Source of the DNA: Liolophura sinensis
Taxonomy: Eukaryota > Mollusca > Polyplacophora > Chitonida > Chitonidae
Assembly: GCF_032854445.1 (NCBI RefSeq)
Contig: NC_088301.1
Coordinates: forward strand, 28,814,402 to 28,878,401
Reading direction: 5' to 3'
DNA length: 64,000 nucleotides
A model generated the notes under the pieces. It saw nothing but the letters and a program-made list of their open reading frames with translations, made no database searches and had not been told where the DNA came from. The position numbers and the translations under genes were made by a program. Below, in pieces: positions 34,490-49,400 of this stretch; position 1 is the stretch's first letter, and the number at the start of each line of letters is the position of its first letter.

Positions 34490-37400
34490 TCTTATGTTTA
34501 CAACATTTTATTTTATATCAATGTCCTAATTTCACAGAAAATGAGACTGGTGATGTGAATGAATCGTACAAAGAGATGAGGATGCATTCATTATATGTGC
34601 AGTATTTAATACCCATGACAAAGTCTCATTCTGTGATGTTTTTGAAGATTGTCTCCGCAATTTCTGCCAGCCCGATCTCTCTCAGGGCAATCTTCAGGGC
34701 CCCTGGTGTTGCTCTCTCACCTTCATTTTCCTGAAACAAATTATGAATTAAAGGCCAATTCAAACACACAGTTTTCAAGTTACGCTATTATGGCAACAGA
34801 GTGGCATACCAGTACCAAATCACGAATACAGCTACTAGCCTATCTTTTAACATGGCAGTGTTCAAGTTTAGATAGAACTAGAATATCATTAGCTCGCCTG
34901 TACAAAGCACAGGTTTAGCTTATATCACACCCAGAGCAGTGGTGTACAATAACAGGGGAAGTGCTGTTAAGGGAAATGTTAGGGGTCTAAAAAAAGTAAT
35001 GCACATGCTGAGCTCAGGTTTTCTACACAAAGCAGAGCACAATAACACCAGGGGGGATGTTCCCTCAATGATGTGCTGAGAGAATATTAATTGCCGTAAA
35101 TTACAAAATTCGTGAACTGGTTCATTGTGTACCGTATTAGAATCAATGTTAGGAACTTAGGGGTGGTAGGTTAAAAAGTGTTGCATACATGTATATAGAG
35201 CTGAGGTTTTCATATGACATGAGGGTGTAATGACATAGGGTGGAGTGAAGGGGTGGGGGGGGGGGTGCTAGATGTTCTACCGTTGATGCGCTGTGTGCAT
35301 ATTAATTACCGTAAATTAAACATAAGTGTATTGTGTATTAGAATCAACGTTAAGGTAATGGAATAGCTCATACAGTAAGTTGGAATGGCAAAACTGACAA
35401 CCTGGCATGCTGATGTACAATGCATGCCATTCGTATCCAATCTCGAGGAACTGTTCAGGTAAGGGAAGAGTTCGTAAGTTATAACCTCAAACAAGCAATC
35501 GCGTATAAATCCAAGGTTACATACTGGATATTATGTGCGGCTTGGAGGGAAACCCACGACCATCCGCAGATTGCTGGTAGACCTTCCCACGTACAGCCGG
35601 AGAGGAAGCCAGCATGAGCTGGACTTGAACTCACAGCGACTGCATTGGTGACAGACTCCTGGGTCATTACGCTGCGCTAGCGCACTAACCAACTGAGCCA
35701 CGGAGGCCCCCATATGCATGTAAAATCTCAGGATAATACATGTTGTGCTGAGATACCACACCTAACATTTTGTTTAACATTGATTCTACTACGGCATACA
35801 ATGAGTCGTGAATTTTGTAATTTATGGTACCTAATATGAACACAGCGAACAACGGTGGAACATCCCTCTTGTGTTATTGTGCTCTACGTTGTAATGGATT
35901 TTTCTTTTACTCTGGCAAACTAGAACAACCAAATGCTGCTGCATGGCAGCCATCTCTAGAAAAACTCTAATGAATCTCTCTACATGAGCAAATTACTAGA
36001 AATCATGAAAGAAAAACTGAAATGAACATGGGAATCCCCTTTTGATCTTATGAACCCATCGATTACTCAACATCTTCCAGCAGCTATATGTGGGTTATAT
36101 CCTCAGTGTAATCAAACTATTAAGAAGTAAGGCCCATACTGAATCTCAACTGGAAACTTGAATGATGTATTTATTCTAATATGAAACAACTCAAACTTTA
36201 GATGGTTTAAATGATAAAATAAGTTCAGTTATAGTTTCAGAGTTTTGAAGTTTTGCAAAAGTTCAGTTCAGTTCTGTAAATCCTATTGTGTTTTAGTGTG
36301 TAGCCTAAGATTCTCTATGATGTAATGAGAGTGTGTTCAGGATCCGATCAAAAACTGATGATCGTCACATGTACACTGAATCCAGCCTATTAATGATCCA
36401 ACCATTCCACTGCATTTCCAAACTGGAGGTCTTCACAATCTAAATGATTAGACTGACAATTCCAAGATCATGGGCAAGGAACTAGTTCAGTAAAACCATC
36501 TGACCATCTGGAGTTTTACTTCCCATTGGGTGCAAGAGTTATGAATCTGCTTGCCCTTTACCGCCCCTTCAGGCCACCATCCAGCAGAATGAATGTCGCC
36601 CCTTTTATACCTTCGGAGCCAAAGACAGATTTGACTGTCTGACAGTTAAAGAATTTAAGCATGTCCATGGATCCTAATAGATGAATTTCATGCCTAAAAT
36701 GTTGAGAACATGTTTTTGTGGGCAATGCTTTCCACTCATGCATTTATATTCCTTACCTGCCATTTTGTCAACATCTTTATAGCTTGTGCTGATACCTCTG
36801 TGGTTTCACTCTCAAAATACAAAATTTCGTCATCTAGGAAGTTTAACTCGGTGGCCAGCTTCTTCCAGTCTGAATCAATCTTGTCACTCACCAGCTGAAT
36901 CTGTTGTGCACTCAGTTTTTCAACGACCTCTGCAGGACCTAGCACAACAAAATTATTCCACTCTTGATTCTGTAGTTGTGTCACCATGACATTACTTGCC
37001 AATGATGTAGTTTCTTACTTCTGAGAGTCAAACTTACTACATGTACTCATTTCCAGTCTGCAATTAATATATTCTGCAAAAATTATCTACTTCTTGGTGG
37101 CAGTTTGTAGAAGTTATTTTACAAACTTATCAACTTACTGCCATCTAGCTATTTGATCTGATCAATTTATATTCTATTTGATCTAGCTGATTTACTTATC
37201 CGTGTCTTTTTGAACAAATTACTTTATTTGTGTCTATTTTATCTGATTAACTTAATGGTGTCTATTTGAGCAAAATTAACTTACTGGTGTCTATTTGAGC
37301 AAAATTAACTTACTGGTGTCTATTTGAGCAAAATTAACTTACTTGTGTCTACTTGAGTAAAATAACTTGTCTCTGCATGTATTTGAGATGATTATTAATT

Positions 37401-40400
37401 TACTGGTGTTAGTCTGTTTGAGCTAACAACTTAACTTGTGTATGTCCATTTGAACGGATTAATGTATTTGAGTTAATAACATATTGGTGTCTATCCACTT
37501 CACCCGATCAAATGAAAATGACTTGTGTCAGTCAATTTGAACTGATAACTTACTGGTGTCTATCCACTTCACCCGATCAAATTAAAATTACCTTGTGTCA
37601 GTCAATTTGAGCTGATAACTTACTGGTGTCTATCCACTTCACCCGATCAAATTAAAATTACTTGTGTCAGTCAATTTGAGCTGATAACTTACTGGTGTCT
37701 ATCCACTTCACCCGATCAAATTAAAATTACTTGTGTCAGTCAATTTAAGCTGATAACTTACTGGTGTCTATCCACTTCACCCGATCAAATGAAAATGACT
37801 TGTGTCAGTCTATTTGAACTGATAACTTACAAGTTGACCCCATCTGAGCTGATAAACTTACTAGTGTCTGTATGTTTCAGATTATCCACCTCATCTGGAG
37901 TATCCTTTAATTCTTCCTCATCTTCAATCTGGGTCTTCACTTCCTCGGCTGGCTGTTGAGCAAAAAGTTAGTTTTCCTTAAGGAAAAAATGTATAAGTTG
38001 CATGAAGCGAATATGTTACACAATCTACAAAGTTCAAAACTGCAGTTGTAATACAAGGATGTAGAAGGTTTCCTGTTTTTTCTTGTACATAATATATATG
38101 GTAATTGAAACTAATGTGGTATGTTGTTGTTGTTTAACGAACCACGTGTCCAGATACAAAAGTCTGGAATGTATACATATATGCATGTATGCTTGAGGTT
38201 TACATTGTACTTAACAATTTTTCAGTCACATGACAAAGACTCATCAGGTGAGTGTACATACAATGTGTGTTCTTATGGCAGGTTGAGTTCATGCCGCCAA
38301 AATGATACTGCTACTGAAGTATCATCTCGTTGAAAACACCAGATATGACACCTCACCCTATCACATTATATTGACACCAGGCCAGCTAGACATGTTTTCT
38401 TGCTCTAACCTCTCAGTGCCGAGCATAAAGCGAGGTAGCGACAAGTATCATCTTTACAGTCTTTGGTATGACCTGACCTAGGTTTTATCGCAGGTCTCCC
38501 GACTTTGAGGCAGACGCCCTAGCCATTGAAGCTTCATCGGTTTTAAGTTTTCAGTGCGAGTTAAGTACTAATCATTTCCCAGCTGTGGTGGAGTTAAGTA
38601 TTTCCCTAAACCCTGTATTATGTACATGTAGCTGCACAGTTCTGTGGCCCTTACTGGCATCTCCTTGGCCAGTTTAGTAACCATCAGTTCCAAGTATGCA
38701 GGCAAGGCCATGGCCGGCTGGTTGGTGTGTGTGAAAAAATGGGGACTTCTCCTGGCCAGCAGACGCAGAGCTCTCCACTGGAAGTTTATGTTGTTTACAA
38801 GTCTGTCAAAAAAAAAAAAACAAATAAATATCTTGAAATTTAAAGTTGACACATGTAAATACCGTCAACCTTTTCAACCACTAACACACTTTTTTCAGTG
38901 GAATTTATGTATACCATTATTATGAAAATAACACTAAAAATGACTTGTTTTTGTCATCAAAGTTGCAAGCTTCATAAAACTATGCAAATTATTTTTCTAC
39001 ACCCCATAGTTCTGTCAGAATGTTTCAAAATATTGGTTGCAGGGGCAGTTGAACAAAAAAGAGTACAGTAAATGATGCAAAACTTCACCCCAAAAAGTGA
39101 ATGTTTAGAGGCTAATAAATGTCATAAAGTATTACTTTTGGAGCTGAAACGTACACAATTTCACCATCCTTTCACTATAAATCTTTTCACACTTTTCTCA
39201 GATGAACAGAACTGTCAAAATACGTTAAAATGTGCAACATTTACGTCAAAATTTTTCTTAATTAACCTTGATTAATTAATTTGTTATAAACATTAAACCC
39301 ACATACTAAGTCATATTAGATCAACCGTTTTTCATGAAATATTCCATATACAAAAAGTCACGGAAAGCACATGGCATGAACGGGAAGGCAATACACCATA
39401 TTCCATGTATAGTTTAGCCAATTATTCTGCTAAGTGTATCCCATGATTCCTTCTGCCCGGTTGTGAATCTTCGTAACTGAACACAGCTGAGGGGCAGTTG
39501 GGTCAGAGAAGTGTATTCACGGAATTGTGCATATATACATGACAAACCCAATAAACACGCTCAAACTTCACTGAGCAATGAAATGTTAGTTCTAGTACCA
39601 TCTCTACAAACATGTGTCTACTACCAGAATGCATGTTTCATGTATGGTCTGTGAGAGTAAGTCATGCCAAAACACACACATTGAAACTGTGGACCGGTCT
39701 AAAGCAAACAAATACCCGAAAGCTAATTTACAAATATAAATACAACATTTCCCTGCTCGGACTTGACACGATTATGTTCTGCTTTACAGGTCTGCTCTTG
39801 CAAGAGTAAAAAATTTCCACCCAGTTTGTTTTCATCAGAACTCATGATAAATATTACCAGTGTATGGAAATTTGGGGGATTTGGAGGTATCAAACTACAA
39901 CTGACTGAGTATTCAGAATCATTCGACTGAGTGGCAGAATCATTTAAACATTATTCATACCTAATTACATAACAAGGTACATCATTTCAATGCCTGGGAC
40001 ACAATCCCTAACTTTACATAAATGGACATAAAACACGGCAACTGTCCAATTATGTAAAGTTGGGTCTTCTGTTGCAGACACTGAAGTTATGTACCTTGTT
40101 ATGTAATTAGGTATAAATAGCAATCCGACAATCCTGCCACCCATGGGAGTTTACCCCATGTGGTGAGTGCTAGCAGCCAGATCCTCACTTGGGATTGCAT
40201 GTGGTGAGTGCCAGCAGCCAGATCCTCACTTGGGATTACATGTGGTGAGGGCAAGCAGCCAGATCCTCACTTGGGATTACATGTGGTGAGGGCCAGCAGC
40301 CAGATCCTCACTTGGGATTACATGTGGTGAGGGCCAGCAGCCAGACCGTCACTTGGGATTGCATGTGGTGAGGGCCAGCAGCCGGATCCTCACTTGGGAT

Positions 40401-43400
40401 TACATGTGGTGAGGGCCAGCAGCCAGAACCTCACTTGGGATTACATGTGGTGAGGGCCAGCAGCCAGATCCTCACTTGGGATTACATGTGGTGAGGGCCA
40501 GCAGCCAGACCCTCACTTGGGATTATATGTGGTGAGGGCCAGCAGCCAGACCCTCACTTCGGATTACATGTGGTGAGGGCCAGCAGCCAGACCCTCACTT
40601 GGGATTATATGTGGTGAGGGCCAGCAGCCAGACCCTCACTTCGGATTACATGTGGTGAGGGCCAGCAGCCAGATCCTCACTTGAGATTACATGTGGTGAG
40701 GGCAAGCAGCCAGATCCTCACTTGGGATTGCATGTGGTGAGGGCCAGCAGCCAGACCCTCACTTGGGATTACATGTGGTGAGGGCCAGCAGCCAGATCCT
40801 CACTTGGGATTACATATGGTGCAGGCCAGCAGACAGATCCTCACTTGGGATTACATGTGATGAGGGCCAGCAGCCAGACCCTCATTTGGGATTACATGTG
40901 GTGAGGGCCAGCAGCCAGACCTTCACTTGGGATTACTGCACAGCTGGGGTTGATCACTCTATCCTGTCATCTCTACCAGCAACTCTAATCAGCTAAACTT
41001 TATGGCTAGAAATTTTCGGCTAAACTATACAAGAAATACGGTAATTACCGCATTTTACCTAAAGCTTGGTTTATACAAACATACTTTCACAAGAATACAA
41101 AGGTCTTAAGCTGACACTTTAAACTTACTCAAACTTCACAAAAAACTCTTACGTGGCCCTATAAAGGTGGATGAATCAGACAGAAACAAGCAAATTACGA
41201 CACCTGAAAAATTTAGGTGAGATACTGTAATGCTGCATCCACATTTTGTAACGGATAATGTGTGAAGAAAAAGTTCTCAACTAACTTGTATTCATCTTCA
41301 ATCATGTTTTCAGGATCAGCTTGTTCAATTGGTTCAGCGAAAAATTCTTCAACACTCGGTAAGAACACCCTGTCAACAAATACACATTTAAGTATCATTA
41401 AAGTCTACATTCACATTCAGGTAGGTTGTGTCAAAAACCTTAAAATGAGATTGTTGTCCACATCATTGCCAGGTTTATATTCCAGATGTACAATGACTCT
41501 TGAGTCGCTCATAAATGTGGTCACCACCTGTCCAACTCATGCTGGCTTCCTCTCCGGCCGTACGTGGTAAGGTCGTCCAGCAACCTGCGCTTGGTCGTGG
41601 GCTTCCCCCAGCTCTGTCCTTCCACCATAATACTGGCTGCCATCGTAAAAGTGAAATATTCTTGAGCAAGGTGTAAAGCACCCATCAAAAATAAATAAAA
41701 CAATGAAAACATTCCAAATTAAACTTCTTGTAAATAAATAAAATTATAAATATATGAAGATTTAAATACAAAAATATATAAATAAATGAATATATTGCAC
41801 ATAAAACTGTCCGTACAAGTAGGTCGTATCAAAGACATATTCTAATCCAATGGAATCTACTGTCCTGAATAAGGGAGAAAACAACTAAACTGTAAATATC
41901 ACATTAACCATCATAAAACTGACCTAACCAATGCAAAAGCACACTGAAACTTGATACATTACGCGCTTATCTGATTGGTGTTTTAGATCAGATTCAAGAC
42001 TAGTTTGCATTTAATAACAGACAGGTTATTGTTGTCCTTTTTCACCTCACCAGGTTAGGCTAATACTGCTGACGGTCGGTTTAGCAAGCATTGACCTGGT
42101 GGGATATTATTTGTTTCATCTTCAAAACCCAGTAATGCAAAAGAGTGTATATGATACAAATCACCAGTACAACAATATGATAAAGATGCCAAATTGTAGA
42201 AGATTAAAGCTTTTGTGGACTCCTTAATAAAACTTGAGCAGGAAACTCCAATGGGTACACGAAGTTATTGTACACATTCTTGTGTTGGAGACAACTAGTG
42301 CCAAAATAAAAGCCCACATACACAGCCAATGGATTTTTTTTTTTGTGGATGTGTGTGGTTACCTGTTGTATGGTAAACTCTCCACTGTGGGTCAGATAAT
42401 TGGTCAATTATTAGTGACCTCCTGGTAGGAAATGCTAACCTTTTGTCTGATTTACATGCTGCCATATTACCAGGACTCAGATTCCAAAGTCTTGTCAACT
42501 CAGCATTCCCCATCTTGATGATTTTTCCTCCAGTAGCTTGAAGATCATCTCCAACACTCTTCCGACTTAGTCTGTAAATGGTACACAACATCTTGTATCA
42601 CCCCAAGCCTGAACGACAATGAGACAGCAATTATATGGGCACAAACAGATTCTAAACTTTTTGGAGCCAAAATTTTATACAAATAATATATAAATGATTA
42701 AAATAACAATTTCTGAAACTTAGACTCAATAGGTTTGTTTGCTTTATTCTCCACAGGAATATGATAATATATGCCTCAAGTATTGAAGATTTACATTGAT
42801 CAAGAATTTAAAAGAGCACTTTCATTTGACAAAAAGGTCCATTTCAACAGATGCCCCTTTTCTCGTAGAATCATGAAGCAGTTTGAGTATACAGACAAAT
42901 TAGAACAAAGATTAAGGTTAGCATGATGCAGAGTTTGGCAATATTCATGTATATTACAGTGTGAGTTTTGATGTGTTTTCATACAGCCTTCTGTCCCCCA
43001 CCCTGGGTGCATTGTCCACATTATTGGCAAATCCCACACATTTTTTAATTTTGTTGTCTTCTTACTTCTGTTTGGTCTGACTACTATCACCTTTACTCCT
43101 CTCAAAACTTGGACACCCTTCATTCTTCCAGCTGTTCCAATTCTCTTCCCGTTTCAGTATATGCTGCAAAAAAAACCAAAACAACCAGCAATGAAATTAC
43201 AGCGTGAAAATGGGAAATATCCTGTAGTAGGCTCAAGATCAGTGAAATTTTGGCTGGGACTGTAATGTTACACAAGTAGTGGTCCTACTGGCCTAGAATT
43301 GATCAACATTCACTTAAGTTACCAGCGACCTTACCTATACAGTGTATGTCACCTAAAAATATGGCTTCCAAAGGATGCTTTAAACTTTTGGTTCCGTCGG

Positions 43401-46400
43401 TTAACTTAACTGAAGGTCATCTCAAAGGACACTAGTGCTGTTGTCCCCGAGACAAAGTAAATTTTTCCCTTCTACTTTGTTTCATACAGGGAAGGCTATA
43501 AAATAAATGAGGATAAAAGTAATTCTTAACACACTGGATCAAACTTCAGCCAAGGCCAACAATATGGCTTTCAACACTGGTTTCCTACAGATATGGCGTT
43601 TGTGAAGTCCCACCATTATTGGATTTTATTATTTATTTGATTGGTGTTTCACGTCATATTCAAGAATATTTCACTTATACAATGACGGCCAGCATTACAG
43701 TGGGAAGAAACAGGGCAGAGCCTGAGAAAAACCCACGACCATCTGCAGGTTGATGCCAGACCTTCCCACATACAGCCAGAGGGGAATTAACCACCATGAG
43801 TTAGACATGGAGAGAGGTTCCTGGGTCATTGTGCTGCACTGGTACATTTACCACCTCTGCCATGAGGGAGGTCCCGATAAGTCCCAATATTAGGCTTCAT
43901 TAACATGAATTTATCAAAAAATCAAAATTTCATCCTGCGCTAAAAAGTGGGTGAGCGTTTCGTGGACTTCTAGGATATCAGCTTGGCACGGATGCAGGGG
44001 AAAGGAAGTTCTTCATCTGATTTTCAATTCGGTGGAGGTGAGACTTTTACTGAGCAGAAATAATACTTTTTAGCAGTTTTACAACACCAGTCCCTTAGGA
44101 TTATACATCCACCAGTCCCTAGATTTATTTATTCAATTATCTGATTGGTGTTTTACACTGTACTCAAGAATATTTCAATTATACGACGGCATTATGGTGG
44201 GAGGAAACAGAGCAGAGCCTAGGGGAAACCCACGACCATTCGCAGATTGCTGATAGACCTTCCCACATACGGCTGGAGAGGGAGCCAGCATGAGTTGGAC
44301 TAGAGGCTGCATTGGTGAGAGACTCCTGGGTCATTACGCTGCGCTAGCATGCTAACCGACTGAGCCACGGAGGCCCCACCAGTCCCTAAGAGCTTGATAT
44401 CTGAGTAACCTGCATGGCAATTAAGAGATGTCTACCTTGATGGCTTGCACAAACTTGTCACCATCAGGAGGTGTCTCCTTTATTAGTCTGTACACCTTCT
44501 CCTGTGTGCTGTCCACCCACTGATTCTGTTCTTCTGTCAGCACAAAGCTAGAACTGCAGGACAAATCAGAACATTGTAGGGATGAGAAAAACTACTGGGC
44601 AGACTTCACAAACCTGAGAAGAAGTGACGAGAAAGTGAGAACCAGATGTAAAATAGGTGAGAACCAGATGCAGGAAGGTGAAAACCAGATGCAAAAAGAT
44701 AAGAACCAGATTCAAAAAGGTAAGAACTAGATGCAGGAAGGTAAGAACCTGATGCAGGAAGGTGAAAACGTGATGTAGGAAGGTGAGAACCTGATGCAGG
44801 TGGGAACCAAATGCAACAAAAAGATGAGAACCATACATAGCAAAAAAGTGAGAACCAGATTCAATATCCAGATGTAAAGGTGAGACATCATATTTAGGAA
44901 TTTTTCATTTTATACACGGGTGGCCAGTATATGGGCGCAGGAAACTTGAGCACCTGGGGTAAACCCACAAGCTTCAGCACATTACTGCTGAGGTTTCTCA
45001 CGTGTGACTAGACACGAAAACGATGCTGGTGGAAGACAAGTAGTCTTTACTGAGCATTAGGCTACCAAGACAGGTATTCTTTATATCACAGCTGATGAGA
45101 TCACAGGGTCTATCAGCTCATGTTGTTGAGGCTTGTCCAGAACAACTTAATGCTATGACTGGCTGTGTTTTTCTTTCAGCACTACAGCATTTAGGAATTC
45201 AATTATATTGCATTTATTCCCTTGATCAGGAGCCCGTATCACAAAAGTCTAAGGGTTAGGCATAGATGGCTAACTCAGTTAGTCATGATTAGCAATTTTG
45301 TCTAGACCATTTCACTGAGAAATGTTTGGTTATCAACTAAAGCTTTTTTGTCTTAGATTTTGAAAATTAGCCAGTAATCCTTGGTCACATCCAAAGGTGA
45401 CTAGGATGAAACAAATACAGATTTGAAACTGAGTTGAGTCCAGTTTGAAAGGAACAAATTAGCTTGTATCAGCAAATAATGGGATTTTTAAAGCTCACAA
45501 ACCACTGAAATTTATCTGTCCTTGTTGTTTAGATTTTACCATCTGTTGAGAGTTATCCCCCTTTGTTTGCAAACTTTGTCAACAATAAAAATGAAGAAGG
45601 AATTACATTTTTGTGTTTTTCATACATAGTACCAGTAATTTAATTTATTTATATTTTGAAGCCAATTTAATAATTATCATCATGGACCCTACCAATCAGA
45701 TTGCTGTAGAGCAGCCACATACAAGACCATGGGAAGCCTTTAGACAGTTTTACATTTGTGAAACGGACTAGTCCATTTTTTTTTCATAGCCTGCTTACTG
45801 TAGTCAGCTAAATGACCCTCAGCTTGTGAAATGGGCCCCACTGTCTCATGAAACGATAATTTTTACTTTAGCACAGTTTATCTCACAAATTTCAAAAACA
45901 CTGTTTTAACAAAGGATCGTATTGAATTGAAACCAGCCATGTAATTGGTTCAGACTTATATATATGAATCCTCTTTGATCAAGGCATTGTAACTACAGTT
46001 TCGATTTCTCCTATAATAAACATTGAAATACCTTTTGAATCTAACAGGTAAGTGGAGATACTGGAAAAGTATCAGGAACTGCACCAGGACGTATCGGCGA
46101 AAATTACTGTCACTAAGCTGCAGGTCAAACAACTGAAACAAAACACGAATAGAGTCAGCATTGTATGGAATGGTGAACCCTAATGTGGCTCATGTCTAAA
46201 TCTTCTGTGACAGGGTGATTTCTACAGAAACAGACCTTAAATTTACATTTATTTGCTTATTTGATTGGTGTTTCACGTCATAATCCAGAACATTTCACTT
46301 ATACGACAACAGCAAGCATTAAGCCAGCGGGAAATCAGGCAGAGCCCAGGGAAAACCCACGACCATCCCCAGGTTGCTGCCAGACCTTACAATGTACGGC

Positions 46401-49400
46401 CAGACAGGAAGCCAGCATGGGAACTCACAGCATTCCTGGGTCATAGCACTGCGCTGGCGTGCCAACCATCTCAACCAAGAAGGTCCCCATTTATATGCTC
46501 ACATATCATATATATTTATCTTGAATATACAAATATATCTTAATTTCTTAAGTAACNNNNNNNNNNNNNNNNNNNNNNNNNNNNNNNNNNNNNNNNNNNN
46601 NNNNNNNNNNNNNNNNNNNNNNNNNNNNNNNNNNNNNNNNNNNNNNNNNNNNNNNNNNNNNNNNNNNNNNNNNNNNNNNNNNNNNNNNNNNNNNNNNNNN
46701 NNNNNNNNNNNNNNNNNNNNNNNNNNNNNNNNNNNNNNNNNNNNNNNNNNNNNNNNAAACTGCCACTGAGGTGGAAAAGATAGCCGTTGTTATCACTCAT
46801 ACATTTTGGTTTTGGACCAAAACTGCTACTGTGGTGGAAAAGATAGCCCGTTGGTATTACTCATACATTTTGGTTTGGACCAAAAATGCCACTGTGTGGA
46901 AAAGATAGCCCGTTATTATTACTCATACATTTTGGTTTGGACCAAAACTGCCACTGTGGTGGAAAAGATAGCACGTTGTTATCACTCATACATTTTGGTT
47001 TGGACCAAAACTGCCACTGAGGTGGAAAAGATGGCCCATTGTTACCACTCATACATTTTGGTTTGGACCACCCTCTCCTCAACATTTTTGCACAATTAAA
47101 TAAGTTTATCTTATTAATGAATCGTTCTAAATACTGTTCATATACTTTGTCTGATAAGAAAGTACTTTATCCTTCTTGTAACACTTTACAAAGCGTACAA
47201 AACCATAAGGCATATTTAGAATGTAAATCACAAAATATTCAGGAATCAAAACTCCTGAATCTACAACAACCGACAAAATTCTCTTTGAGTATTGCACATT
47301 TATATAGCACTTAAGACTATTTCCTTTGAATTGGAAGCTGTCACACCGACAGTTACAGAAAGCAGAAAAAACCTGTGGGAAACCAGACAAGTCAAAACTT
47401 CTGGACATACACCTGGAAATAAGCAAACATGGGCATGTTAAAATCAATGTTGGAATCAGTTAGTAGATAATAAATGTTGGAATCAGTTAGTAGATAATAA
47501 ATGTTGGAATCAGTTAGTAGATAATAAAAGTTGGAATCAGTTAGTAGATAATAAATGTTGGAATCAGTTAGTAAAATAATGACCTCAGATAGGGGGTGAG
47601 TTGCACTGATAGGCCCCCACAACCCACAAGTACTCACTGAAGAGAACTTCTTCCATGGCGCCTTCTCATAACACTGTGTAGGTTTTCTGAAGATATCTTG
47701 CAAGTACCAGAACTTTCTGTACAAGTTGTAATCTATTGGACAGGGATCACTGAAACAAATTCAAGCCCACATATGAAGGACATACATGTAGCAGGGACAG
47801 CTGGAAACAGCAAACAATGCATACACTTATAACATACTAAACAACACATTCATTCTAATCTGATTCAAGAACAAATTAGGTACAATGTATTTCTTGACTG
47901 ATCAATTTACTGTATCACTCTCTGCACTGATTGATAAGCAACAACGTACTAGTCGCAAGCCAATGCGTACAACAACAACTAGACTCTGAACCCACCCTTT
48001 TCTTCTCCAGGACAATCTACCAGCAAATATTGACATTTCTCAATTTTTGCCTAGCCCGATGATTGGCAATTCTTGATTGATGGATGGTTGATTTACTTCA
48101 CTTAAAATACAAGTAGCAATTTTAACAACGCGCCGTGCGTTTTCTGTAGCAGGAGTAAATAAAATATGTACCTCGAGAAAGAGAGATCAGACATTTCTCC
48201 TTCCTCAATCCCTTCCATGCTCTCATTTTTATCTGATCCCTGTTATCACAAAACATAATGAGATAGTTAATATAGGCATGCATAGATTTCTTCACCTTTT
48301 CATGCTCCTTTTATTACGCAGAATTTTGAAAAACGCAAAAGCTATGGTTTTGAAATGCTACCTATCAGAAATGATTTAAAAGGTTTCCAATAAAAATGTT
48401 TCAGTAATCATTTACCAGTCCAAGAGAATCAATCAAAAAAGTCAGCAAGATCACAAATTACTGTTTACTTTAAAATGGTGTCAAAGGTATAACTGCCTGC
48501 TCATTGATCCAGTGAGGTTTGAATTACAACTCTTGGCGGATCCCCTTAGACTCTTCATTCAACAGCCCCTTGTTACCACTAGGACGTGCGAGTATGCTTA
48601 TCACACAAGGCAATCCACCAATAAAACTGACCACAATCCTATCAGTTAAAAATCCTTGAGTCCAGCTATGATATAATGAAACCAATGAAATAAATGACTG
48701 AATGAATAAACCTGGTCAGATACGGACACGACTAACCTTAGGTTTCAGTTCCTCTGGCTCACTCAAGTAAACTGTCACATTCTCCAGGTTAAACTGACTG
48801 GTCAAATTCAGCGCTGAAAAAAAAAAAACCAATCTGGTTTTTGGGGACCTATTCATAAATTCACAACATTTACCTTCCTGGAAGTGAAGACTAATGTGGA
48901 CATCAAACAAGGCATTCAGAGAACACCAGTAGCTCACCTGACTGAGCAGTTTGTAAAACTGCATAATGTTCAAGTGAGGTTATATGTTCAATACTGACCT
49001 GTAAACCAAAATAAAGTAGAATGACACTGTCATACACAGGTATTATTCTCTAATTATACGGTGCTAAGATCTTGTCATTAAATCAACAAGAAAGGCACAC
49101 ATTACTACACTGTCACAACTATGACTGTTCATCGTATGCATAAAGATTGCAGAGCAGTGACTTCGTATGTTATACAGTTGTAAACCATTGCAGTTCTAAA
49201 CTAAATTTGGTGCACTATGGTGGCAATTGCAACCCTATAAATAGCCGAGTAAATACTGAACTATGGTAATAAAAACTTCTTTGTGGGGGGAGTTCAAGCA
49301 CCTGCTCGTTGGAGTGGTCTTTGATTTGAAAATTGCTACTTGGCTATCTGTGTACTATGGGTGGCCACTGCAATCCTATAAATGGCTGAGCAATTACTCA

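What the first reader, a model, noticed from the sequence alone, without database searches (positions are those of the whole stretch)
37130..37862. Intronic tandem array built from an exon-intron junction, carrying repeated decoy 5' splice sites
The real donor of THOC1 exon 17 (minus strand, gacacta|gtaagtttatcag at 37862) is followed into the intron by a tandem array whose unit repeats that junction: agacaccagtaagttatcag. Near-consensus GTAAGTT donors occur at 37824, 37755, 37686, 37617 and 37547 (period 69-70), and in a shorter-period part at about 37337, 37308 and 37278. The array therefore seems to have arisen by amplifying the splice site with the last bases of the exon. This should either titrate U1 snRNP or allow alternative exon 17 ends with 69-nt (23-codon) steps. 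Two-thirds of such extensions would meet stops, so competition is a real question.
Basis: seen in the sequence. Interest (0 to 1): 0.75.

Follow-up and report, generated by a model that had tools for sequence, protein, structure and literature searches.

The report
Splice-site-derived minisatellite in THOC1 intron
In an invertebrate THOC1 gene the start of one intron, together with the last bases of the exon before it, appears to have been copied over and over into a short tandem repeat that fills most of the intron with look-alike splice sites, an arrangement already known from a few human genes.

Summary
The sequence observation holds; the functional reading mostly does not. The gene is THOC1 (minus strand). 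The intron (donor 37861, likely acceptor before 36938, 923 nt) is about 80% spanned by an array of degenerate 29-33-nt monomers, with a young 69-bp sub-array (37466-37830) and three fresh 29-bp copies inside 37202-37368. A profile built from 14 monomers without the exon-intron junction finds the junction as its only significant match in the array-masked 64-kb window (E 7.4e-6; next best 2.7). The likeness covers about 13 exonic and 20 intronic bases. Three genome searches found the unit only here.

The 23-codon-step idea fails. An in-frame TAA overlaps the first decoy, and 0 of 16 tested decoy donors gives an in-frame THOC1; each gives a premature stop of the NMD class. Global U1 titration is implausible.

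Donor-spanning minisatellites are known: ABCA7 intron 18, the CBS 31-bp VNTR and, by title and recall, IFI6. This is a new member of that kind. Best reading: a locally amplified junction, mostly tolerated, with rare decoy use removed by NMD. No RNA data or related species were available.

The parts
38655..38802 (-). Preceding THOC1 exon (ends [15 protein letters not shown]...KLAKEMP), donor CCA|GTAAGG at 38654
   Evidence: Read by inspection; boundaries located. Phase-0 join to exon 17 (KEMP|PAEEVKT) by inspection. Not aligned to a known THOC1 by a tool.
37862..37952 (-).
   Evidence: Aligns with the acidic linker of a solved THO complex subunit 1 chain (7znk_A) when joined to neighbouring peptides; alone it has no relevant match. 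Frame runs on into the next exon.
37842..37874 (-). Junction monomer: 13 exonic + 20 intronic bases, homologous to the array unit; real donor G(+1) at 37861
   Evidence: E 7.4e-6; 19 of 23 flank matches
37827..37829 (-). In-frame TAA met by any extension of exon 17 beyond the first decoy donor
37466..37830 (-). Young 69-bp sub-array, 5.3 copies, carrying GTAAGTT at 37830, 37761, 37692, 37623, 37553
   Evidence: five copies, pairwise 64-68 of 69 bases alike
37369..37465 (-). Old, degenerate monomers between the two sub-arrays, without GTAAGT
37202..37368 (-). 29-bp sub-array, 5.9 copies by TRF: three fresh copies carry GTAAGTT at 37342, 37313, 37284; the further copies are old and have lost it
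37126..37201 (-). Degenerate 3' edge of the array; one fragment still carries GTAAGTT at 37138
36757..36938 (-). Next THOC1 exon (death domain); acceptor tgctag|GTCCTG, alternative in-frame acceptor 9 nt on (exon start 36929)
   Evidence: the acceptor region is not like the array (192 of 500 shuffles reach its score)
34626..34730 (-). Likely last coding exon of THOC1 ([34 protein letters not shown] stop)

Best explanation
This is a locally born minisatellite seeded by the 5' splice junction of THOC1 exon 17. Tandem duplication of about 29-33 bp spanning the junction (about 13 exonic and 20 intronic bases), followed by slippage or unequal exchange, spread monomers over about 80% of the intron. 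Old copies decayed; later bursts (69-bp and 29-bp units) spread fresh copies that keep GTAAGTT. The junction copy at the 5' edge stayed because it is the working donor and codes protein. In splicing, the real donor is inferred to win because it borders the purine-rich exon; occasional use of a decoy gives a frameshift or premature stop, and the mRNA is inferred to be removed by NMD. The array is therefore most likely near-neutral. Shown: homology, register, no other copy found in this assembly, decoy strength by sequence, coding consequence. Inferred: direction of copying, real usage, NMD, neutrality.
For: The junction is the only significant match of a profile made without it; its flanks beat all 7,747 other GT sites examined, 73 GTRAGT sites among them. 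The first decoy is 31 nt from the real donor, in register with the 29-33-nt unit. Three genome searches found the array only here. Donor 37861 joins either of the two likely acceptors in frame to the end of the gene; the entry phase 0 is by inspection. 0 of 16 decoy donors keeps the frame; stops lie 163-971 nt before the last modelled exon junction (acceptor 36938). All seven aligned old monomers lack GTAAGT, and their donor core decayed about as fast as the rest: 9 of 41 against 29 of 180 mismatches, Fisher p 0.37 (one of them, m37444, was aligned there with an extra T treated as an insertion and so counted as core-matching). So there is no sign that decoys are kept. In ABCA7, whose intron-18 VNTR starts with the exon-18 donor, use of the donor one unit in was (taking the paper's figures in order of mention) 2 +/- 1%; its abundance in cell lines did not change with VNTR length, and premature-stop transcripts rose under cycloheximide (PMC5954066, section 21 read).
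Against: No RNA evidence at all. Direction is not proven: the array might have supplied the present donor. A second gene model is in frame to the end of the gene: donor GAG|GTGGAT at 37889 with acceptor ctacag before 36969. Its donor scores 1.1 bits against 3.25, and the acceptor has, by eye, almost no pyrimidine tract; if true, 37861 would itself be a decoy. Equal-strength downstream donors are, from recalled work on duplicated 5' splice sites, often preferred when nearest the acceptor, which would predict heavy decoy use. One decoy (37342, CAA|GTAAGTTA, 5.25) and one array site (37591, AAG|GTAATT, 4.39) score above the real donor with a recalled human donor matrix. The accessibility advantage of the real donor (0.138 against 0.012-0.043 for -3..+6) is absent for the five 69-bp-array decoys when only +1..+6 is scored (0.157 against 0.113-0.191). 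One old edge fragment (37138) does keep GTAAGTT.
Confidence: 0.7

Rival explanations
1. Donor captured by a pre-existing array: the minisatellite was there first and the exon end moved into it, so that the present donor and the last codons are array-derived.
For: Homology itself has no direction; likeness reaches about 13 nt into the exon; the exon end lies in a poorly conserved acidic linker; a weaker upstream donor at 37889 with an acceptor before 36969 is in frame and could be a remnant of an older exon end.
Against: With donor 37861 the protein runs on with S-P where the solved THOC1 chain also has S-P (by eye). The 37889 donor is weak (1.1 bits) and gives a premature stop with both likely acceptors.
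Confidence: 0.16
2. A functional NMD-coupled dosage device: decoy donors divert a fraction of THOC1 pre-mRNA into unproductive transcripts, and array length sets the fraction.
For: Each of 16 tested decoy products carries a premature stop more than 50 nt before the last modelled junction; ten decoys share the real donor's GTAAGTT core.
Against: No excess conservation of the decoy core in old monomers; in ABCA7 the share spliced one unit in did not change with VNTR length. Conservation between species is not testable here.
Confidence: 0.08
3. The intron itself was born by tandem duplication, with donor and acceptor both from the unit.
For: About 80% of the intron is spanned by the array.
Against: The acceptor region is not like the array (192 of 500 shuffles reach its score). 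In the potato RdRp case the new intron is made of pieces of the two copies of the duplicated stretch (PMC4974935, abstract read).
Confidence: 0.03
4. Chance likeness between a generic donor consensus and a minisatellite that happens to carry GTAAGT.
For: GTAAGT is shared by any strong donor.
Against: The likeness outside the donor core exceeds that of 7,747 other GT sites; profile E 7.4e-6.
Confidence: 0.02

Closest known systems
ABCA7 intron 18 VNTR (human; PMC5954066, passages and section 21 read)
   Same: 25-bp unit directly following the exon; the first two bases of the array are the exon donor; retention of one unit through a cryptic donor gives a frameshift and premature stop.
   Different: Unit in a C-rich region and highly polymorphic (about 12 to about 427 units); disease association reported. 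Here the unit is AT-rich, degenerate and includes about 13 exonic bases; polymorphism unknown.
CBS 31-bp VNTR, c.1444_1467+7(16_21) (human; PMC2630376, passages read)
   Same: By its notation (my reading) the unit spans 24 exonic and 7 intronic bases, so each unit repeats the exon-intron junction; period about 30.
   Different: Units invariably 31 bp and polymorphic (16-21); its splicing outcome was not in the passages read. Here mostly intronic and decayed.
[quoted passage not shown] PMC2630376, passage read)
   Same: A duplicated splice junction inside a gene, with one copy strongly preferred (the paper says the more distal one).
   Different: Two copies only and another junction; no array.
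IFI6 (6-16/G1P3) minisatellite providing multiple splice donors (Turri et al. 1995, seen only as a reference title in PMC3618361, PMC2572611, PMC2915984; details recalled)
   Same: Tandem repeat across a donor giving several usable donors.
   Different: By recall its 12-nt unit keeps the frame, giving 4-residue steps; here 0 of 16 keeps it.
[quoted passage not shown]
   Same: Tandem duplication across an exon-intron boundary.
   Different: There a new intron forms; here none is indicated.

Membership tests
Donor-spanning minisatellite/VNTR (ABCA7, CBS, IFI6 kind) | Tandem array directly abutting the exon with the real donor as part of its first unit | tested here: met
   that 37861 is the working donor is a gene-model inference (one search shows a weaker alternative)
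Donor-spanning minisatellite/VNTR (ABCA7, CBS, IFI6 kind) | Units carry donor-like sequences comparable to the real one | tested here: met
   ten GTAAGTT sites; one above, seven within 0.25 bits below and two 1.0-1.2 bits below the real donor
Donor-spanning minisatellite/VNTR (ABCA7, CBS, IFI6 kind) | Length polymorphism between individuals | not testable with these tools
   One assembly only
Donor-spanning minisatellite/VNTR (ABCA7, CBS, IFI6 kind) | Measured use of array donors in RNA | not testable with these tools
   No RNA data
Alternative 5' splice-site array with in-frame steps (IFI6-like output) | Extensions keep the reading frame | tested here: not met
   0 of 16 donors
Intron gain by tandem duplication | Both splice sites derive from copies of one unit | tested here: not met
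   Acceptor versus array: 192 of 500 shuffles as good
Dispersed satellite or transposon-borne repeat | Copies at other loci of the genome | tested here: not met
   matches only at this locus (searches are candidate-limited and skip very common words)
THOC1 | Sequence match to THO complex subunit 1 | tested here: met
   Four PF11957 matches, all in this window (9 candidates scored); PDB chains named THO complex subunit 1

The most novel reading that the evidence does not exclude
The array is a working rheostat: about ten decoy donors with the real donor's core, all leading to NMD, set how much productive mRNA of the RNA-export factor THOC1 is made, and array length tunes it between individuals or species.
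Probability: 0.06. Interest if true: 0.65.

Novelty: new member of a known kind. Interest (0 to 1): 0.33.

Why it matters
It gives, in an invertebrate housekeeping gene, a natural test of how the spliceosome picks one 5' splice site when about ten downstream sites with the same core lie in the same intron, and it suggests that minisatellites seeded by splice junctions are not a human peculiarity. The coding consequence is clean (each of 16 tested decoy products is a premature stop), so decoy use can be read as junction counts with and without NMD.

Tried and rejected
Rejected: 23-codon isoform steps; acceptor derived from the array (192 of 500 shuffles as good); array elsewhere in the genome; array likeness further up the exon (37915-37875: 123 of 500 shuffles as good; whole exon: 289 of 500); selection on the decoy core in old monomers (Fisher p 0.37; +1G was changed in 4 of 6 aligned old monomers, too few to call). 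RNA accessibility as the reason why the real donor would win is only weakly suggested.

Weak or negative gene-model results: exon 17 alone against solved structures found only an unrelated protein at E 0.39; for the death-domain exon the top hit was an unrelated designed protein (E 0.00031), just ahead of THO complex subunit 1 (E 0.00054). The joined query left out the exon at 38655-38802 and holds a few residues read from intron at its first join, so its linker alignment is only supportive.

Species: mitochondrial COX1 reads AGA/AGG at places that look like Ser and AAA at places that look like Lys (judged by eye against recalled sequence), so probably an invertebrate other than an echinoderm; not named further. 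No eukaryote relatives are held in these tools, so the intron could not be compared between species. A paper search for THOC1 with minisatellite listed one review, on R-loops (listing only).

The 16 donors are the sites listed within 1 kcal/mol of the real donor, less the real donor itself and less 36984, which I dropped; it lies beyond the same stop. One search's count (15 GT sites at or below the real donor's duplex energy in 920 nt, against 4.1 expected from the rest of the minus strand) includes five GTGAAG sites whose low energy probably comes from an off-register pairing (not shown by the call). With the recalled donor matrix only 2 sites in the intron score at or above the real donor, against 1.2 expected; so the intron is rich in near-equal donors, not in stronger ones.
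Full report
What the sequence shows. The minus strand from 38.8 to 34.6 kb holds the 3' end of THOC1. PF11957 gives four matches, all inside this window (9 candidates scored in the 609-Mb assembly), and exon peptides match PDB chains named THO complex subunit 1. The exon in question, 37952-37862, is 91 nt long. It is weakly but sensibly aligned to the acidic linker of such a chain when read with its neighbours and has no relevant match on its own. By inspection it enters in phase 0 from the previous exon. It leaves in phase 1 into the death-domain exon, at tgctag|GTCCTG (exon start 36938) or 9 nt later (36929); both run in frame to the end of the gene. The intron is then 923 or 932 nt. A second model, donor GAG|GTGGAT at 37889 with acceptor ctacag before 36969, is also in frame, but has a weaker donor (1.1 against 3.25 bits) and, by eye, a poor pyrimidine tract. 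I keep 37861 as the working donor, as an inference.

The array. Tandem Repeats Finder reports a 69-bp array at 37466-37830 and a 29-bp array at 37202-37368. Iterative alignment lists 23 monomer-like segments from the junction itself (37874) to 37126, about 80% of the intron, so both arrays look like parts of one older array of 29-33-nt monomers. The five 69-bp copies are pairwise 64-68 of 69 alike. In leave-one-out scoring of 14 monomers, seven fresh ones score 22.9-31.4 bits and seven old ones 2.5-15.8 bits; the junction scores 22.8. The seven fresh ones keep GTAAGT and the seven old ones do not; an old fragment at the 3' edge (37138) does. GTAAGTT occurs at ten places in the intron besides the real donor.

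Is the junction part of the array? A profile was built from 14 monomers without the junction. In the window with 37110-37840 masked it finds the junction at E 7.4e-6 and nothing else below E 2.7. Because any strong donor shares GTAAGT, I left out -3..+7 and compared the remaining 23 flanking bases: the junction matches 19; the best of 7,747 other GT sites matches 14, and the best of 73 GTRAGT sites 12. The exonic part by itself (-13..-4) matches 8 of 10, reached by 6 of 7,747 sites and by 1 of the 73 GTRAGT sites. Further up the exon, and at the acceptor, there is no likeness beyond shuffles. Three genome searches found the array only here; they are candidate-limited, so absence elsewhere is likely but not proven.

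What it can do. By core sequence the decoys resemble the real donor (U1 duplex -5.4 to -5.6 kcal/mol for the ten GTAAGTT sites, against -5.6). With a recalled human donor matrix the real donor scores 3.25, seven of the ten decoys 3.04-3.06, one 5.25, and two 2.0-2.3. For scale, the next exon's donor scores 7.39 and the previous exon's 1.84. But exon 17 read into the intron meets TAA at 37829-37827. Of 16 decoy donors tested with acceptor 36938, 15 include this stop and the first one (37830, +31 nt) shifts the frame to a stop early in the next exon; the stops lie 163-971 nt before the last modelled exon junction. With the two other acceptors the first decoy also gives a premature stop. So none of the tested decoys makes a longer THOC1; all make NMD-class transcripts. 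The idea of alternative ends in 23-codon steps is thereby excluded for this allele and gene model, and depletion of cellular U1 by about ten sites on one transcript is not credible (established knowledge). Local competition remains a real question. The real donor is predicted to be more open for -3..+6 (0.138 against 0.012-0.043), but for +1..+6 the five decoys of the 69-bp array are about as open (0.113-0.191 against 0.157).

Compared with what is known. ABCA7 has a 25-bp VNTR whose first two bases are the exon-18 donor; retention of one unit frameshifts the mRNA (PMC5954066, passages). The paper gives its two frameshifting isoforms as 14 +/- 6 and 2 +/- 1%; I take the second to be the one-unit retention by order of mention. 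Neither changed with VNTR length in cell lines, premature-stop transcripts rose with cycloheximide, and it was exon-19 skipping that grew with length (section 21). That last effect, skipping of the next exon, was not considered in my coding test. CBS carries a 31-bp VNTR whose notation c.1444_1467+7 I read as 24 exonic plus 7 intronic bases per unit (PMC2630376, passages). The IFI6 minisatellite is known to me from recall and from its title in three reference lists. The THOC1 array is the same kind of thing in an invertebrate, degenerate, and without in-frame output among the donors tested.

Judgement. The preferred mechanism is a locally amplified splice junction that is mostly tolerated. The novelty is modest: a new member of a known kind, attractive mainly as a natural experiment on 5' splice-site choice. 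Literature statements rest on ten searches of an open-access library, nine with listings (many irrelevant) and one with none; most subscription papers are not held there.

Noticed in passing
window 44631-44860: A pyrimidine-rich 21-nt tandem repeat (TRF 44631-44800; further units by eye to 44860; minus-strand unit CTGCATCTGGTTCTCACCTTC) lies just upstream of what looks like another THOC1 exon (about 44553-44436, by eye and recall), near where a polypyrimidine tract belongs.
   Followed up: partly
window 40157-40936: A 19-copy 41-bp minisatellite between two THOC1 exons carries GTGAGG on both strands in its consensus unit, i.e. another set of donor-like sites.
   Followed up: partly
window 47442-47573: A 27-bp tandem repeat within the THOC1 region has TACTAAC, the classical branch-point consensus (recalled), on the minus strand of its consensus unit.
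   Followed up: no
window 36929-36938: Tandem acceptors 9 nt apart at the death-domain exon; both keep the frame (TDT-SPAEVVEK or TDT-KVVEK).
   Followed up: partly
window about 35540-35710, minus strand: tRNA-derived-SINE-like sequence (TGGCTCAGTTGGTTAGTGCG...GTTCAAGTCC); similar peptide traces recur near 44.3, 43.8 and 46.4 kb. Identification by recall.
   Followed up: no
G000 contig C99: Seven COX1 matches about 15.5 kb apart on one contig, six with the same score and one shorter: head-to-tail mitochondrial copies, probably an assembly concatemer; one more copy on C632.
   Followed up: no
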